Of a DNA stretch of 64,000 nt, positions 59,408-64,000 are shown in pieces. The notes under the pieces are model-generated. The model searched no databases. It was not told where the DNA came from and saw only the letters and a list, made by a program, of their open reading frames with translations. Numbering within the stretch: position 1 is the stretch's first letter; every line of letters starts with the position of its first letter. Position numbers and translations under genes: made by a program. This DNA comes from Citricoccus sp. SGAir0253 (GTDB taxonomy: Bacteria; Actinomycetota; Actinomycetes; Actinomycetales; Micrococcaceae), in NCBI RefSeq assembly GCF_005877055.1, contig NZ_CP039424.1:62001-126000 (forward strand), written 5' to 3'.

Positions 59408-59863
59408 TCAGTCCCCGGCGGCGGGGAGCATGGGCCGGTGCTCGAAGAAGGTCTGCAGCACCACGGTCGTGCGGGTGTTCACGGAGGCCACCTGCCGCAC
59501 CTCGTTGACGAGCGCCTCCAGCTCCTTGGGGGTGGCCACGCGCACGAACAGCATGTACGCGGCGTCCCCGGCCACCGAGTGGCAGGCCTCGATCGCCGTG
59601 ATGGGCTCCAGGAGCTCCGGGGCGTTGTCCGGCTGGCGGGGGTCCAGGGGCGTGATCTCGATGAACGCCGAGAGCGGCCTGCCGATGGCCTCTGGGTCCA
59701 GCAGGGCCCGGTAGCCGGTGATGACGCCGCTGCTCTCGAGCTTGCGCAGCCGCGCCTGCACGGCCGAGACCGAGAGGCCCACCCGTTCGGAGAGCTGGGC
59801 GAGGGTGGCCCGCGGGTCGTGGGAGACCTCGGTGGCCAGCCTCAGGTCCACGGGATCGTCCAT
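59408..59863 (-). CDS. Lrp/AsnC family transcriptional regulator
   Basis: A 151-residue regulator: N-terminal winged helix-turn-helix (about 10-55; ATLAQLSERVGLSVSAVQARLRKLESSGVITGY) and a C-terminal RAM effector domain (about 70-145; CHSVAGDAAYMLFVRVATPKELEALV) that binds amino acids. ATG 59863 follows minus-strand TACCGT (59871-59876) by 7 nt, so it is probably leaderless. It is divergent from the DUF6421 cluster, and the shared 124-bp gap contains a palindrome, so it most likely controls that cluster and itself. Confidence 0.92.
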   Translation of the reverse strand: MDDPVDLRLATEVSHDPRATLAQLSERVGLSVSAVQARLRKLESSGVITGYRALLDPEAIGRPLSAFIEITPLDPRQPDNAPELLEPITAIEACHSVAGDAAYMLFVRVATPKELEALVNEVRQVASVNTRTTVVLQTFFEHRPMLPAAGD

Positions 59864-59899
59864 GGAGTGCACGGTACCAGCCCGGATCGTCTCGGGGAG

Positions 59900-59951
59900 T
59901 TGACACCACCCCCGCCGTGTGTGAATGTTCCCGTGTGTGATGCATATCACC
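59900..59951. promoter_or_regulatory. Operator/promoter region of the DUF6421 cluster
   Basis: A perfect -35 TTGACA (59900-59905, plus) is followed by an A+T-rich stretch. TGTGA-TGCATA-TCACC (59936-59951) matches the CRP/GlxR consensus at 9 of 10 positions and contains the palindrome GTGAT-GCAT-ATCAC. Lrp and a CRP-type factor could both act here. The -10 is uncertain. AGGAGGG (59976-59982) is the ribosome site of the next gene. Confidence 0.5.
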
Positions 59952-59987
59952 GGAAAATTTACGTTCAATCCCATCAGGAGGGCCTAA

Positions 59988-61418
59988 ATGTCCACGTCCC
60001 AGCAGGCAGTGCAGGCGATCATCGGCGAGCCCGAGGTCGTCGAGGACGCCCATGGCGTGGAGACCAGCCCGGCCTGGCTGCGGCTGAAGGCCGCGGCCAC
60101 CGCGCTGCAGGGCCTGCAGGCCCGGGATGGGTCCGTGCCCGATCCCACCGACCACCCCGCGGCGCGCCGCCACGTCGAGGAGATCGTGGCGTCCGTCGTC
60201 GAGCTCGCCCCCCGGTTCCCGCACGACACGGCGTACCTCGAGGCCCTGCCGGCGGACTTCGCGCGCTGGGCCGACGGCGGCTTCGGCGAGCCGGACTTCC
60301 TCGACTCGCTCGTGGAGTTCCAGCCGCAGCGGCACCGCGTGGACGGGGTCCGCCACCTCGTGGTGTTCCCGATGTACACCCAGAACGGCTCGCCGGACCG
60401 GCACGTCGAGGCCCTGCTGGTCGAGGCGATCTGGCCGGAGTTCATCGCCGCACTGGAGGCCGGGGACTACGGCAACAGGCTCTTCGTCTCCCTGCGGCTG
60501 GTCGACTTCACGCCGGGGTACGACACCAACTCGGCCGTGCTGTTCCCCGAGACGGTGGCCACCCGGGAGACGCCCGTGTTCACGTGGGGCGCGATCTTCC
60601 AGGACCGCGAGGCGGCCCGCTACCGCCGCGTCGTCTCCGCGGCGGCGGAGATCACCCGGCTGCGACTGCCGGACGAGGCCGCGGCCCTACTGGCGGACCA
60701 GGACCTCGCCGAGAGGACCTTCGTGATGTGGGACCTCATCCACGACCGGACGCACATGCGCGGGGACCTGCCCTTCGATCCCTTCATGATCAAGCAGCGG
60801 ATGCCGTACTTCCTCTACACCCTGGAGGAGCTGCGCTGCGACCTGACGGCGTTCCGCGAGGCGGTGTCGATCGAGCGGGGCCTCGCCGCGCGCGCCGCGG
60901 CCGGGGAGGAGCTCACCGCCCTCGAGGAGCAGACCCGGCGCCACGCCGGACTGGTCCAGTACGCGGTCGTCTTCGACCGGATCTTCCGCTTCGCCCTCAC
61001 CGGCTCGCGCGTGCGCAACTACGACGGCCTGGGCGGCCAGCTGCTGTTCGCCTGGCTCCACCGCAAGCACGTGCTGCAGTGGCGGGACGTGGAGCTCAGC
61101 GTGGACTGGGGGGCGATCGCGGACGCCGTCGTGGAGCTCGGCGAGGCCGTCGACCGGCTGTACTGGGAGTCGATCGACCGGCCCAGGACGCTGCACTGGC
61201 TCAAGGCGTACGAGCTCATCGCCGCCGTCGTGCCCCCGCACCCCGCCTCCGCCTGGGCGCAGGGACTGCCGCGGGACGTGCTGGCCGGTCCGCCCCGGGG
61301 CTACACGGACCTGGTGCTGGACGACGAGTTCCCGCTGTCCATGTTCTTCGAGGCGCTCGGCCGGAAGCTGCGCGGCGTCATCGAGTCCACGGCCGGCATC
61401 CGCGCCACGGACGCCTGA
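59988..61418 (+). CDS. DUF6421 family protein with a putative metal site
   Basis: A 476-residue cytosolic protein with no signal or membrane helix; the family is widespread in actinobacteria and uncharacterised. H252-D-R-T-H256 (in MWDLIHDRTHMRGDLPFDPF) followed by E280-E-L-R-C-D285 resembles the HExxH...EExRxD/E layout of zinc peptidases such as M49, with Asp in place of the catalytic Glu. RHLVVFPMYTQNGSPDRHVEALLVEAIWPEF and FTPGYDTNSAVLFPETV are other conserved-looking blocks. AGGAGGG lies 5 nt before the ATG. The SDR gene starts 3 nt after its stop. The enzymatic role is inferred only. Confidence 0.85.
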   Translation: MSTSQQAVQAIIGEPEVVEDAHGVETSPAWLRLKAAATALQGLQARDGSVPDPTDHPAARRHVEEIVASVVELAPRFPHDTAYLEALPADFARWADGGFGEPDFLDSLVEFQPQRHRVDGVRHLVVFPMYTQNGSPDRHVEALLVEAIWPEFIAALEAGDYGNRLFVSLRLVDFTPGYDTNSAVLFPETVATRETPVFTWGAIFQDREAARYRRVVSAAAEITRLRLPDEAAALLADQDLAERTFVMWDLIHDRTHMRGDLPFDPFMIKQRMPYFLYTLEELRCDLTAFREAVSIERGLAARAAAGEELTALEEQTRRHAGLVQYAVVFDRIFRFALTGSRVRNYDGLGGQLLFAWLHRKHVLQWRDVELSVDWGAIADAVVELGEAVDRLYWESIDRPRTLHWLKAYELIAAVVPPHPASAWAQGLPRDVLAGPPRGYTDLVLDDEFPLSMFFEALGRKLRGVIESTAGIRATDA

Positions 61419-61421
61419 GCG

Positions 61422-62090
61422 ATGGCCGACCTGACCGGACGGACGGTGCTGGTCGCGGGCGCCGGCAGCGCGTCCGGGCTGGCGGCGACGCGCGCCCTGG
61501 CCGCCGCCGGGGCCCGCGTCGTCGCCACCGGCCGCAACGCCGCGCGGCTCACCCCGCTCGCGGCGCTCGGGGCGGACACCGAGGTGGTCGACCTCGCGGA
61601 CGAGGTCGCCGTGCTCGGCCTCGTGGACCGCCTGCGGGAGCGCGGCCTCGCGGTCGACGGCGTCCTCCACCTCGTCGGCGGCTGGCGCGGGGGAGGGGGG
61701 CTGGCGGGCCAGGCGGAGGCGGACTACCGCGCCCTGGAGCCCTCCCTCACCGCCCTGCGGCACGTCAGCCGCGCCCTCGACGACGACCTGCGGTCCTCGC
61801 CGGCCGGCCGGCTGGCGATCGTGTCCTCGACGGCGGTGGCGCGCCCGCTCGCGGGCGGGGCCAACTACGCCGCCGTCAAGGCGGCCGCCGAGGCGTGGAC
61901 CCGCGCCGTGGCGCAGGGCTACGCGAAGGCGGCCCGCGAGGCCGGCGAACCCCTGCGGGCCGCGGCGGTCGTCTACCGGGTGAAGGCCCTGGCCGGGCTG
62001 GAGGACCGCCTCGCGGCCGCCTACGCCGGCCTGTGGGACGCGGACGCGGCCCGACTGAACGACTCGATCATCGAGATCCACGAAAGGTGA
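61422..62090 (+). CDS. SDR family oxidoreductase, short atypical form
   Basis: A 222-residue Rossmann protein: glycine loop VAGAGSASGLAATRAL (GAGSASG, one step off the classical TGxxxGxG), ATGRN at strand 2 suggesting NADP, and YAAVK as the catalytic Tyr/Lys pair; the preceding catalytic Ser lies in IVSSTAV. At 222 residues it is shorter than classical SDRs because the substrate-binding C-terminal region is reduced. Tightly spaced between the DUF6421 and threonine-aldolase genes, so it probably works on the same pathway. Confidence 0.85.
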   Translation: MADLTGRTVLVAGAGSASGLAATRALAAAGARVVATGRNAARLTPLAALGADTEVVDLADEVAVLGLVDRLRERGLAVDGVLHLVGGWRGGGGLAGQAEADYRALEPSLTALRHVSRALDDDLRSSPAGRLAIVSSTAVARPLAGGANYAAVKAAAEAWTRAVAQGYAKAAREAGEPLRAAAVVYRVKALAGLEDRLAAAYAGLWDADAARLNDSIIEIHER

Positions 62091-62098
62091 TGCACGGA

Positions 62099-63172
62099 AT
62101 GCAGAGGATCCACGACCCGCAGGTGCGGGGATTCGCCTCGGACAACTACTCCGGGGTCCACCCCGAGGTGCTGGAGGCCCTCGCCGTGGCCAACGGCGGC
62201 CACCAGGTCGCCTACGGCGAGGACGAGTACACGGCCCGGCTGCAGGAGGTGGTCCGGGGCCACTTCGGCGCCGGCGCCACGGCGTGGCCCGTCTTCAACG
62301 GCACGGGCGCCAACGTCGTCGGCCTCGAGTCCATGCTCCCGCGCTGGGGCGCGGTGGTCTGCGCGGACTCGGCGCACATCCACGTCGACGAGGGCGGGGC
62401 GCCGGAGAAGTCCGCCGGCATCAAGCTGCTGCCCGTGCCCACGGCGGACGGCAAGCTCACGCCCGAGCTGATCGCCCGGGAGGCCTGGGGCTGGGGGGAC
62501 GAGCACCGTGCCCAGCCCCTCGTCGTCTACCTCACGCAGTCCACCGAGCTCGGCACGCTGTACACGCCGGAGGAACTCCGGGCGATCACCGACCACGCCC
62601 ATGCCCACGGCATGGCCGTGTTCATGGACGGGGCCCGCCTGGCCAACGCGGCGGCCGCCCTGGGGCTGCCGCTGCGGGCGTTCACCACCGACGCCGGCGT
62701 GGACGTGCTCTCCCTCGGCGGCACCAAGAACGGGGCACTCGCCGCCGAGGCGGTGGTGGTCCTGGACGAGGCGGCCTCCCACGGGCTGGTCTACCTGCGC
62801 AAGCACCAGATGCAGCTGGCCTCCAAGATGCGCTTCGTCTCGGCGCAGCTGCTGGCCCTGCTGGACGGGGACCTCTACCTGCGCACCGCGGGCCACGCCA
62901 ACGCCATGGCCCGGCGCCTGCGCGAGGGCATCGAGGCCGGCATCGCGGACGGGTCCCTGCCCGGCGTTGCCTTCACCCAGCCGACCCACGTCAACTCGGT
63001 GTTCGCCACCCTGCCCCCGGGCATCGCGGACCGGCTCCGGCAACGTTTCCGGTTCTACGACTGGGACGCCGCCCGGGGCGAGGTCCGCTGGGTGTGCAGC
63101 TTCGACACCACCGAGGAGGACGTGGACGCGTTCCTGGCCGCCCTGCGCGCGGAGCTCGTCCCCGTCGGCTGA
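62099..63172 (+). CDS. Low-specificity L-threonine aldolase / beta-eliminating lyase family
   Basis: PLP enzyme of fold type I, 357 residues. The FASDNYSGVHPEVL start, PVFNGTGANVVGL, and the PLP-lysine motif LSLGGTKNGAL are diagnostic of the threonine aldolase/beta-eliminating lyase family; VFMDGARLANAAAALG contains the PLP-nitrogen Asp. It could split threonine or a related beta-hydroxy amino acid into glycine and an aldehyde. ATG 62099 is favoured by GGTGAT-type ribosome pairing 7 nt upstream; ATG 62090, sharing a base with the SDR stop, is the alternative. Third gene of the DUF6421 cluster. Confidence 0.9.
   Translation: MQRIHDPQVRGFASDNYSGVHPEVLEALAVANGGHQVAYGEDEYTARLQEVVRGHFGAGATAWPVFNGTGANVVGLESMLPRWGAVVCADSAHIHVDEGGAPEKSAGIKLLPVPTADGKLTPELIAREAWGWGDEHRAQPLVVYLTQSTELGTLYTPEELRAITDHAHAHGMAVFMDGARLANAAAALGLPLRAFTTDAGVDVLSLGGTKNGALAAEAVVVLDEAASHGLVYLRKHQMQLASKMRFVSAQLLALLDGDLYLRTAGHANAMARRLREGIEAGIADGSLPGVAFTQPTHVNSVFATLPPGIADRLRQRFRFYDWDAARGEVRWVCSFDTTEEDVDAFLAALRAELVPVG

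Positions 63173-63338: not shown

Positions 63339-64000
<662 letters not shown>

What the first reader, a model, noticed from the sequence alone, without database searches (positions are those of the whole stretch)
59408..63172. Lrp-controlled DUF6421-SDR-threonine aldolase cluster: a candidate undescribed pathway
A divergent Lrp/AsnC regulator faces three tightly packed genes: an uncharacterised DUF6421 protein, a reduced SDR and a PLP aldolase. Gaps are 3 nt and 8 nt or less, so they are almost certainly co-expressed. Lrp regulators usually sense amino acids, and the aldolase acts on beta-hydroxy amino acids, which suggests uptake or turnover of an unusual amino acid or peptide. DUF6421 would supply or process the substrate and the SDR would handle the carbonyl product. 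A succinate-semialdehyde-type dehydrogenase follows and may take the aldehyde. Recurrence of the trio elsewhere in actinobacteria is from memory.
Basis: partly seen in the sequence, partly recalled or inferred. Interest (0 to 1): 0.75.

Follow-up and report, generated by a model that had tools for sequence, protein, structure and literature searches.

The report
Predicted iron-pterin amino-acid cleavage operon
A set of genes that travels together across actinobacteria looks like an unrecognised way to oxidise an amino acid (perhaps lysine) with iron, oxygen and a pterin and then split it into glycine and an aldehyde; this rests on sequence evidence and has not been shown by experiment.

Summary
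In detail: a divergent Lrp/AsnC gene faces DUF6421-SDR-threonine aldolase (TA), with a 3-nt gap and an overlapping stop/start. It is not chance. Of 50 usable DUF6421 loci from an even sample of the order, 41 have the SDR next door, 33 an intact-looking TA downstream, 2 neither. A TA homologue is in 49 of 49 DUF6421-positive genomes and 71 of 199 negative ones; the SDR in 41 of 49 and 1 of 199. DUF6421 is no longer uncharacterised: PolE, a member, is an Fe(II)/tetrahydropterin amino-acid oxidase (PMC12614342). The window protein keeps its HDxxH-x23-E motif and its model matches PolE structures best. The SDR carries GGWxGG, as dihydropteridine reductases do. A conserved palindrome lies between Lrp and DUF6421.

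Best reading: DUF6421 beta-hydroxylates an amino acid, the SDR recycles the pterin (or acts on a carbonyl), and TA splits the product into glycine and an aldehyde. Past the window follow the rest of an aldehyde dehydrogenase and a permease 61% identical to E. coli LysP, a lead to lysine: glycine plus 4-aminobutanal, then GABA, paralleling eukaryotic carnitine synthesis. Substrate and reaction type are inferred; lysine and the SDR's role are the weakest steps.

The parts
59408..59863 (-). Lrp/AsnC-family regulator, 151 aa from the conserved start
   Evidence: PF13412/PF13404/PF01037 above cut-offs; a divergent homologue stands beside DUF6421 in 68 of 202 loci
59900..59905 (+). TTGACA, candidate -35 of the DUF6421 promoter, also in K. 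rosea and K. dechangensis
   Evidence: sequence; inference
59951..59963 (.). candidate Lrp operator CGGAAAATTTACG (10 of 11 to CGGAANNTTTCCG)
   Evidence: 62 of 68 Lrp-DUF6421 spacers have 9 or more of 11 matches, 2.7 of 68 expected from shuffles, 13 of 127 upstream regions in loci without the Lrp; four other places in the 64-kb window also reach 9 of 11
59976..59981 (+). AGGAGG ribosome binding site of DUF6421
   Evidence: sequence
59988..61418 (+). DUF6421 protein, predicted Fe(II)/tetrahydropterin-dependent amino-acid oxygenase
   Evidence: PF19985 782.7 bits; AlphaFold model pLDDT 83.4; Foldseek ranks 1-6 are SnPolE/SmPolE, E 6e-12 to 3e-11; profile search finds PolE at 8e-13
60741..60755 (+). 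HDRTH (residues 252-256), two His metal ligands
   Evidence: H[ED]xxHx(21-23)E in 200 of 202 DUF6421 loci
60825..60827 (+). Glu280, third metal ligand (E of x23-E)
   Evidence: motif as published for PolE (PMC12614342)
61422..62090 (+). short-chain dehydrogenase/reductase, candidate dihydropterin-recycling reductase
   Evidence: adh_short; model pLDDT 89.0; nearest folds are classical SDRs
61677..61691 (+). GGWRG (residues 86-90) in place of the usual NNAG
   Evidence: GGW in 168 of 170 trio-type SDR hits over 150 bits; same motif in dihydropteridine reductases
62090..63172 (+). L-threonine aldolase-type PLP enzyme; Lys213 (62726-62728) in GGTKNG is the expected PLP lysine (motif recalled)
   Evidence: PF01212; PDB L-threonine aldolases from 4e-72; NCBIfam aldolase models match below their cut-offs
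63339..64000 (+). aldehyde dehydrogenase, nearest models succinate-semialdehyde type, runs off the window (to G000:C1:126772); followed outside the window by a LysP-like permease (G000:C1:126847-128331)
   Evidence: NCBIfam best PRK09406, 446 bits for the full protein against a cut-off of 730; permease 61% identical to E. coli LysP

Best explanation
The cluster encodes an oxidative amino-acid cleavage route under a local Lrp. (1) DUF6421 binds Fe(II) through His252, His256 and Glu280 and uses O2 and a tetrahydropterin to oxidise the beta carbon of an amino acid to the 3-hydroxy amino acid. (2) The oxidised pterin is reduced again with NAD(P)H by the GGWRG-type SDR. (3) The L-threonine aldolase splits the 3-hydroxy amino acid into glycine and an aldehyde. 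(4) In Kocuria the aldehyde is oxidised by the next gene's aldehyde dehydrogenase, and the substrate enters through the LysP-like permease after it. The Lrp binds the CGGAAnnTTTCCG palindrome and gates the operon by amino-acid level. Shown by computation here: gene order, conservation, motifs, fold match, co-occurrence, palindrome. Shown by others for one family member, PolE: Fe/pterin/O2 chemistry on an amino acid. Inferred: hydroxylation rather than desaturation, the SDR's pterin role, the direction of the aldolase, Lrp binding, and lysine as substrate. My odds by step: Fe/pterin amino-acid oxidase 0.85; product feeds the aldolase 0.6; SDR recycles pterin 0.4; lysine or a lysine derivative 0.25 (lowered from 0.3 after recounted LysP without the query gene itself).
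For: PolE precedent with the same motif, and its stimulation by QDPR (PMC12614342). Motif in 200 of 202 loci. Fold: PolE chains rank 1-6, DPP III after them. TA: homologue (E<=1e-50) in 49 of 49 DUF6421-positive against 71 of 199 negative genomes; close TA (500 bits or more) 36 of 49 against 3 of 199. In all six DUF6421-positive genomes of genus g6, which lack an adjacent TA, a close TA lies 12-25 kb away. SDR: 41 of 49 against 1 of 199. Pairwise distances of the three proteins correlate over 138 loci (0.87, 0.91, 0.81). GGWxGG shared with dihydropteridine reductases. Operator. Lysine: permease 61% identical to LysP; leaving out the window's own permease, 2 of 7 close LysP homologues in the 49 genomes lie within 5 kb of a DUF6421 gene (0.026 expected) and 3 of 7 within 25 kb (0.12 expected); strong aminobutyraldehyde-dehydrogenase-model hits lie within 15 kb in 4 of 39 cases (0.34 expected); L084 has DUF6421-TA-flavin amine oxidase-aminobutyraldehyde dehydrogenase in a row. 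Threonine aldolases cleave 3-hydroxy-trimethyllysine (PMC11016064, passages).
Against: PolE desaturates Ile; Val and Leu gave traces and other proteinogenic amino acids nothing. 8 of 49 DUF6421-positive genomes have no such SDR at E<=1e-40 (the 11 best candidates per genome were scored). By sequence and fold the SDR is nearer FabG/glucose-dehydrogenase types than dihydropteridine reductase, and it keeps the catalytic Ser that QDPR lacks. Pterin-4a-carbinolamine dehydratase shows no clear link: 31 of 49 against 95 of 199, p 0.057. The genome has no PTPS, so the natural pterin is unknown. TA is also common in genomes without DUF6421 (71 of 199), and an E. coli threonine aldolase also cleaves 3-hydroxy-trimethyllysine, so aldolase identity says little about the substrate. 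LysP sits in only 5 of 202 loci, one a fragment; two of the five (L022, L129, both genomes of genus g2) lack an intact TA. Of the 4 aminobutyraldehyde-type cases three are from one family and two from one genus, and one scores just under the cut-off. Related genomes are not independent, so all p-values overstate the case.
Confidence: 0.5

Rival explanations
1. Biosynthesis, not breakdown: the aldolase joins glycine to an aldehyde and DUF6421 then desaturates or hydroxylates the product (or DUF6421 desaturates like PolE), giving an unusual amino acid; the SDR works on that compound.
For: PolE is a desaturase in an antibiotic pathway, and its authors propose that many DUF6421 clusters make unusual amino acids (PMC12614342). 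One PolE-like paralogue sits beside a peptide synthetase and a halogenase (L205).
Against: DUF6421 is in 104 of 394 genomes of the class. Among the trio loci whose neighbours I listed by eye I noticed no peptide synthetase; no systematic search was made. An Lrp, a permease and aldehyde dehydrogenases fit catabolism better.
Confidence: 0.25
2. The SDR is a pathway enzyme on carbon, not on the pterin: it reduces the released aldehyde or oxidises the beta-hydroxyl group.
For: Global similarity to classical carbonyl-reducing SDRs; intact Ser-Tyr-Lys; in Tersicoccus the SDR is followed directly by an aldehyde dehydrogenase with no TA at the locus.
Against: GGWxGG replaces NNAG as in dihydropteridine reductases; the SDR is the least conserved of the three (mean identity 46% against 62% and 68%), which would be odd for an enzyme of the same specific substrate; it stays next to DUF6421 at loci where TA is not adjacent.
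Confidence: 0.45
3. DUF6421 is a zinc peptidase of the DPP III kind that supplies amino acids to the aldolase.
For: DPP III chains are the next fold matches (ranks 7-17).
Against: The DPP III motif HExxGH is in none of 202 loci; the motif is HDxxH-x23-E as in PolE (PMC12614342); PolE structures match better.
Confidence: 0.04
4. The substrate is not lysine but another amino acid (branched-chain, aromatic or arginine-like); the LysP and aldehyde dehydrogenase beside the Kocuria copy are local neighbours.
For: 197 of 202 loci have no LysP-type gene at the locus; PolE uses Ile; arginase-family genes lie nearby in L038 (annotated agmatinase) and L129.
Against: LysP and aminobutyraldehyde/GABA-type genes recur near DUF6421 in several lineages.
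Confidence: 0.65

Closest known systems
PolE (polyoxin cluster), DUF6421 Fe/pterin L-Ile desaturase; PDB 9j2e, 9j2r, 9j30, 9j33, 9j3g
   Same: Named a DUF6421 member in PMC12614342; same fold and metal motif
   Different: PolE is a distant relative, works beside PolF in antibiotic synthesis and desaturates Ile; the trio type has its own SDR and aldolase partners
Eukaryotic carnitine biosynthesis (trimethyllysine hydroxylase, HTML aldolase = threonine aldolase or SHMT, TMABA dehydrogenase)
   Same: Same predicted logic: beta-hydroxylation, PLP aldolase giving glycine plus a C4 amino aldehyde, aldehyde dehydrogenase (PMC11016064 and PMC8085414, passages)
   Different: There the hydroxylase is an Fe-dependent dioxygenase (2-oxoglutarate recalled); here an unrelated Fe/pterin enzyme is predicted. 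The pathway is reported as not observed in prokaryotes (PMC8085414)
Aromatic amino-acid hydroxylases (PF00351) with QDPR and PCD
   Same: Fe plus tetrahydropterin chemistry with a reductase to recycle the cofactor
   Different: No homology to PolE according to PMC12614342; none in this genome; no firm tie to PCD
L-threonine aldolases (PDB 5vye, 7w0i, 1v72)
   Same: Sequence family
   Different: Here tied to DUF6421; also found in genomes without DUF6421

Membership tests
DUF6421 / PF19985 | score above the Pfam cut-off over the full length | tested here: met
   782.7 bits, profile 2-436 of 437
PolE-type Fe/pterin enzymes | HE/DxxH-x(21-23)-E metal motif | tested here: met
   HDRTH-x23-E; 200 of 202 loci
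PolE-type Fe/pterin enzymes | PolE fold | tested here: met
   Foldseek ranks 1-6, TM 0.59-0.61 (query) and 0.74-0.77 (target)
PolE-type Fe/pterin enzymes | Fe-, O2- and tetrahydropterin-dependent oxidation of an amino acid | not testable with these tools
   needs the protein
DPP III (M49 peptidase) | HExxGH zinc motif | tested here: not met
   0 of 202 loci
Dihydropteridine reductase (QDPR) | GGWxGG in place of NNAG | tested here: met
Dihydropteridine reductase (QDPR) | closest sequence and fold relatives are QDPRs; catalytic Ser absent | tested here: not met
   classical SDRs rank first, no QDPR among the 60, 50 and 60 rows listed; Ser135 invariant in 13 sequences
Classical SDR | Rossmann fold with Ser-Tyr-Lys | tested here: met
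   S135, Y149, K153; model
L-threonine aldolase | closest solved relatives are L-threonine aldolases | tested here: met
   activity untested
L-threonine aldolase | score above a curated NCBIfam aldolase model | tested here: not met
   GntG-type 73 bits against 230; low-specificity L-threonine aldolase PRK10534 35 against 312
Lrp/AsnC regulator | AsnC HTH plus AsnC ligand-binding domain | tested here: met
Lysine-specific permease LysP | closest to E. coli LysP among amino-acid permeases | tested here: met
   61% identity to the annotated lysine:H+ symporter; PRK10836 model 715 bits, just under its cut-off of 735, next single-function model 418; transport untested
Carnitine biosynthesis pathway | trimethyllysine hydroxylase and gamma-butyrobetaine hydroxylase | not tested
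   no search was made for these; only the logic is compared

The most novel reading that the evidence does not exclude
Actinobacteria have a previously undescribed lysine (or N-methyl-lysine) breakdown route that copies the logic of carnitine synthesis with unrelated chemistry: an Fe/tetrahydropterin DUF6421 enzyme makes 3-hydroxylysine, a dedicated SDR recycles the pterin, a threonine aldolase releases glycine and 4-aminobutanal, and aldehyde dehydrogenase gives GABA. It is kept in a local Lrp regulon, and its first enzyme is also carried by uncultured phages. (Odds lowered from 0.25 to 0.2 after the LysP recount.)
Probability: 0.2. Interest if true: 0.85.

Novelty: new variant of a known kind. 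Interest (0 to 1): 0.62.

Why it matters
Fe/pterin oxidation of amino acids was known from the aromatic hydroxylases. PolE opened a second family with about 10,000 homologues (PMC12614342) whose ordinary role is unknown. In the genomes sampled here the trio is the usual setting of that family, so its substrate would assign a function to a large, widely conserved gene set. It would also show how bacteria supply and recycle pterins for oxygenases, and it gives a directly testable candidate substrate.

Tried and rejected
PCD (PF01329) as a linked partner: not supported (31 of 49 against 95 of 199, p 0.057). QDPR orthology of the SDR: rejected on global sequence and fold; the shared feature I rely on is GGWxGG. 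Peptidase reading of DUF6421: rejected on motif. PTPS or an aromatic hydroxylase in the genome as a pterin clue: none. The MFS gene downstream of DUF6421 is found in 40 loci and is not general. A search for papers on the tryptophan of dihydropteridine reductase found nothing useful. Papers: DUF6421 by name returned one paper; further searches showed no description of this trio in their listings; that covers the held open-access library only. Fold comparison by VIA-align was not available. Atom coordinates of PolE and of my models were not at hand, so pocket residues could not be compared in space.

Counts and what was left out: the order survey uses all 51 DUF6421 places; one with too little downstream DNA was dropped. 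TA was sought in the DNA fetched, up to about 7 kb downstream; one search counts 34 TA, of which one (L022) is only pieces, hence 33. The phylum set is 16 of the 17 places (the weak second place of G171 was looked at later as L205). The class set is 54 regions I chose (all 39 positive genomes listed as same class outside family f5, two weak paralogues, and part of the rest), so it is not an even sample; 5 had too little DNA. The 80 named loci are the best of at least 595 hits and are biased to near relatives. One search counted the metal motif in 199 of 202; one miss (L170) was my script taking a short first domain, and one search gives 200. The operator consensus was read from part of the same spacers that were then scored. 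Some genomes occur both in the named and in the numbered set. The LysP figure (3 of 8, 4 of 8) included the query gene itself; one search leaves it out. Gene calls outside the trio come from a simple composition-based caller and can be wrong at starts and in overlaps. Genus names for numbered genomes are my guesses and are not used as evidence.
Full report
What is in the sequence. At 59408-63172 a minus-strand Lrp/AsnC gene faces DUF6421, an SDR and an L-threonine aldolase-type gene (TA) on the plus strand. DUF6421 ends at 61418 and the SDR starts at 61422. The SDR stop shares its last base with a TA start at 62090, and a second ATG lies at 62099. The genome search gives one DUF6421 match in the window genome. 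Its closest relatives among the named contigs are Kocuria (84% and 83% identity).

Is it more than chance. In an even sample of 248 genomes of the order, 49 have DUF6421, at 51 places. Of the 50 places with enough downstream DNA, 41 have the SDR directly next, 34 have a TA match on the same strand in the DNA fetched (one, L022, is only pieces, so 33), 26 have both the SDR and a TA of 300 bits or more, and 2 have neither. In the phylum sample 16 of 16 loci have the SDR next and 14 have a TA match, again one in pieces. In a chosen class set of 49 usable loci, 41 have the SDR, 44 TA and 41 both; of the 5 with neither, two are weak PolE-like paralogues, one is a divergent copy, one carries stop codons, and one has an SDR of this kind 4 kb away. 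Across the 248 genomes a TA homologue at E<=1e-50 is in 49 of 49 DUF6421-positive and 71 of 199 negative genomes, and the SDR at E<=1e-40 in 41 of 49 against 1 of 199. In the six positive genomes of genus g6, where TA is not adjacent, a close TA lies 12-25 kb off. Pairwise distances of the three proteins correlate over 138 loci (0.87, 0.91, 0.81; no permutation of 300 reached them). Shared ancestry adds to all of these figures.

What DUF6421 is. The literature search by name gave one paper. It reports that PolE of the polyoxin cluster, a DUF6421 member, is an Fe(II)- and tetrahydropterin-dependent oxidase that desaturates L-isoleucine, is stimulated 2-3 fold by dihydropteridine reductase, and shares the motif HE/DxxHx(21-23)E with the family (PMC12614342; passages, section 16). 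The window protein has HDRTH-x23-Glu, and 200 of 202 loci keep the motif; L037 and L203 do not. My AlphaFold model (pLDDT 83.4) matches six PolE chains best (E 6e-12 to 3e-11), then DPP III peptidases, whose HExxGH motif is in none of the 202. A profile of the family finds PolE at 8e-13 by sequence. The trio type is therefore a distant branch of a family whose one member with a reported activity that I found is an amino-acid oxidase.

The SDR. Nearest relatives by sequence and fold are classical SDRs, and Ser135, Tyr149 and Lys153 are invariant in 13 sequences. Yet 168 of 170 trio-type SDR hits carry GGW where ordinary SDRs have NNAG; of 35 low-scoring SDR hits in the same loci 19 have NAG, 14 neither and 2 GGW. 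Human and worm dihydropteridine reductases have VD(A/G)xxCVAGGWAGG at the same place. With PolE's need for tetrahydropterin and its stimulation by QDPR, I read the SDR as a pterin recycler, at about 0.4, with a carbonyl role as an equal rival. Eight of 49 DUF6421-positive genomes have no such SDR match. PCD is not clearly linked (p 0.057), and the genome has neither PTPS nor an aromatic hydroxylase.

Regulation. In 68 of 202 loci a related Lrp lies divergent to DUF6421. Their spacers share a palindrome, CGGAAnnTTTCCG: 62 of 68 have 9 or more of 11 matches, against 2.7 expected from dinucleotide shuffles and 13 of 127 upstream regions of loci without the Lrp. The window copy is 59951-59963, between the candidate promoter (TTGACA 59900-59905) and the ribosome binding site; four other places in the window also reach 9 of 11. 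Binding itself is inferred.

Substrate clues. Just past the window the same strand carries the rest of the aldehyde dehydrogenase and then an amino-acid permease. The permease is 61% identical to E. coli LysP, annotated as a lysine:H+ symporter. K. dechangensis has the same order, and in K. rosea only a C-terminal piece of the permease was found after TA. Among the 49 genomes there are 8 homologues over 600 bits, one of them the query itself. Of the other 7, 2 lie within 5 kb of a DUF6421 gene (0.026 expected, P 3e-4) and 3 within 25 kb (0.12 expected, P 2e-4); the two nearest belong to second DUF6421 copies in two genomes of one genus, which have the SDR but no intact TA. Strong hits of the aminobutyraldehyde-dehydrogenase model (614 bits or more) stand within 15 kb in 4 of 39 cases (0.34 expected), three of them from one family. 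L084 has DUF6421-TA-flavin amine oxidase (PF01593)-aminobutyraldehyde dehydrogenase in a row. L163 has such a dehydrogenase, an aminotransferase and an Lrp nearby. A Tsukamurella plasmid has amine oxidase, permease, GABA transaminase and succinate-semialdehyde dehydrogenase just upstream. The window genome has a GABA transaminase above cut-off. These point to lysine, 3-hydroxylysine, then glycine plus 4-aminobutanal, then GABA. The limit is plain: only 5 of 202 loci carry the LysP-type gene, and the dehydrogenase and permease of the window genome score below the curated cut-offs of their nearest models.

How it would work and what it resembles. The chain of beta-hydroxylation, PLP aldolase and aldehyde dehydrogenase is the logic of carnitine synthesis, where mouse threonine aldolase cleaves 3-hydroxy-trimethyllysine (PMC11016064, passages) and which was reported as not observed in prokaryotes (PMC8085414, abstract and passages). 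An E. coli threonine aldolase was also active on that compound, so the aldolase alone does not fix the substrate. Here the hydroxylase would be an unrelated Fe/pterin enzyme. I file the protein in the DUF6421/PolE family (motif and fold met, activity untested) and do not file the SDR as a dihydropteridine reductase (global relationship not met).

Verdict. The finding is real and its core idea is partly right. The new points are the Fe/pterin identity, the genome-wide tie to TA, the SDR motif, the operator and the lysine lead. No experiment supports the pathway yet.

Noticed in passing
L034 4992-6317, L035, L036 4995-6359 (IMG/VR contigs): DUF6421 genes 54-55% identical to the window protein, motif kept, in uncultured phage-like contigs; L034 has dUTPase, HNH endonuclease and 2OG-oxygenase genes, L036 an NlpC/tail-type gene; no SDR or TA matches in the fetched DNA of L034 and L036; no match in 50,697 phage records, and no PHROGs family for the two proteins tested.
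   Followed up: partly
L037 6968-8323 (Nocardia sp. NBC_00511 plasmid): DUF6421 paralogue (33% identity) that lacks the metal-binding histidines and lies near a tryptophan 2,3-dioxygenase gene.
   Followed up: no
   Followed up: partly
L031, L032, L039, L163: DUF6421 proteins with a long N-terminal extension of unknown kind ahead of the family domain.
   Followed up: no
L056 10184-11677 and 39 other loci: An MFS transporter on the opposite strand lies downstream of DUF6421 in 38 of the 40 loci that have it, many of them Microbacterium; in L056 it sits between SDR and TA.
   Followed up: partly
L050, L054 (Tersicoccus): DUF6421-SDR-aldehyde dehydrogenase followed by a glycine-betaine-type ABC transporter; a methylated amino acid as substrate is conceivable.
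   Followed up: no
L220 (G357:C3:202249-202791): The only DUF6421-negative genome of the order sample with a trio-type SDR match (168.8 bits, partial); no DUF6421 or TA in the 12 kb around it.
   Followed up: partly
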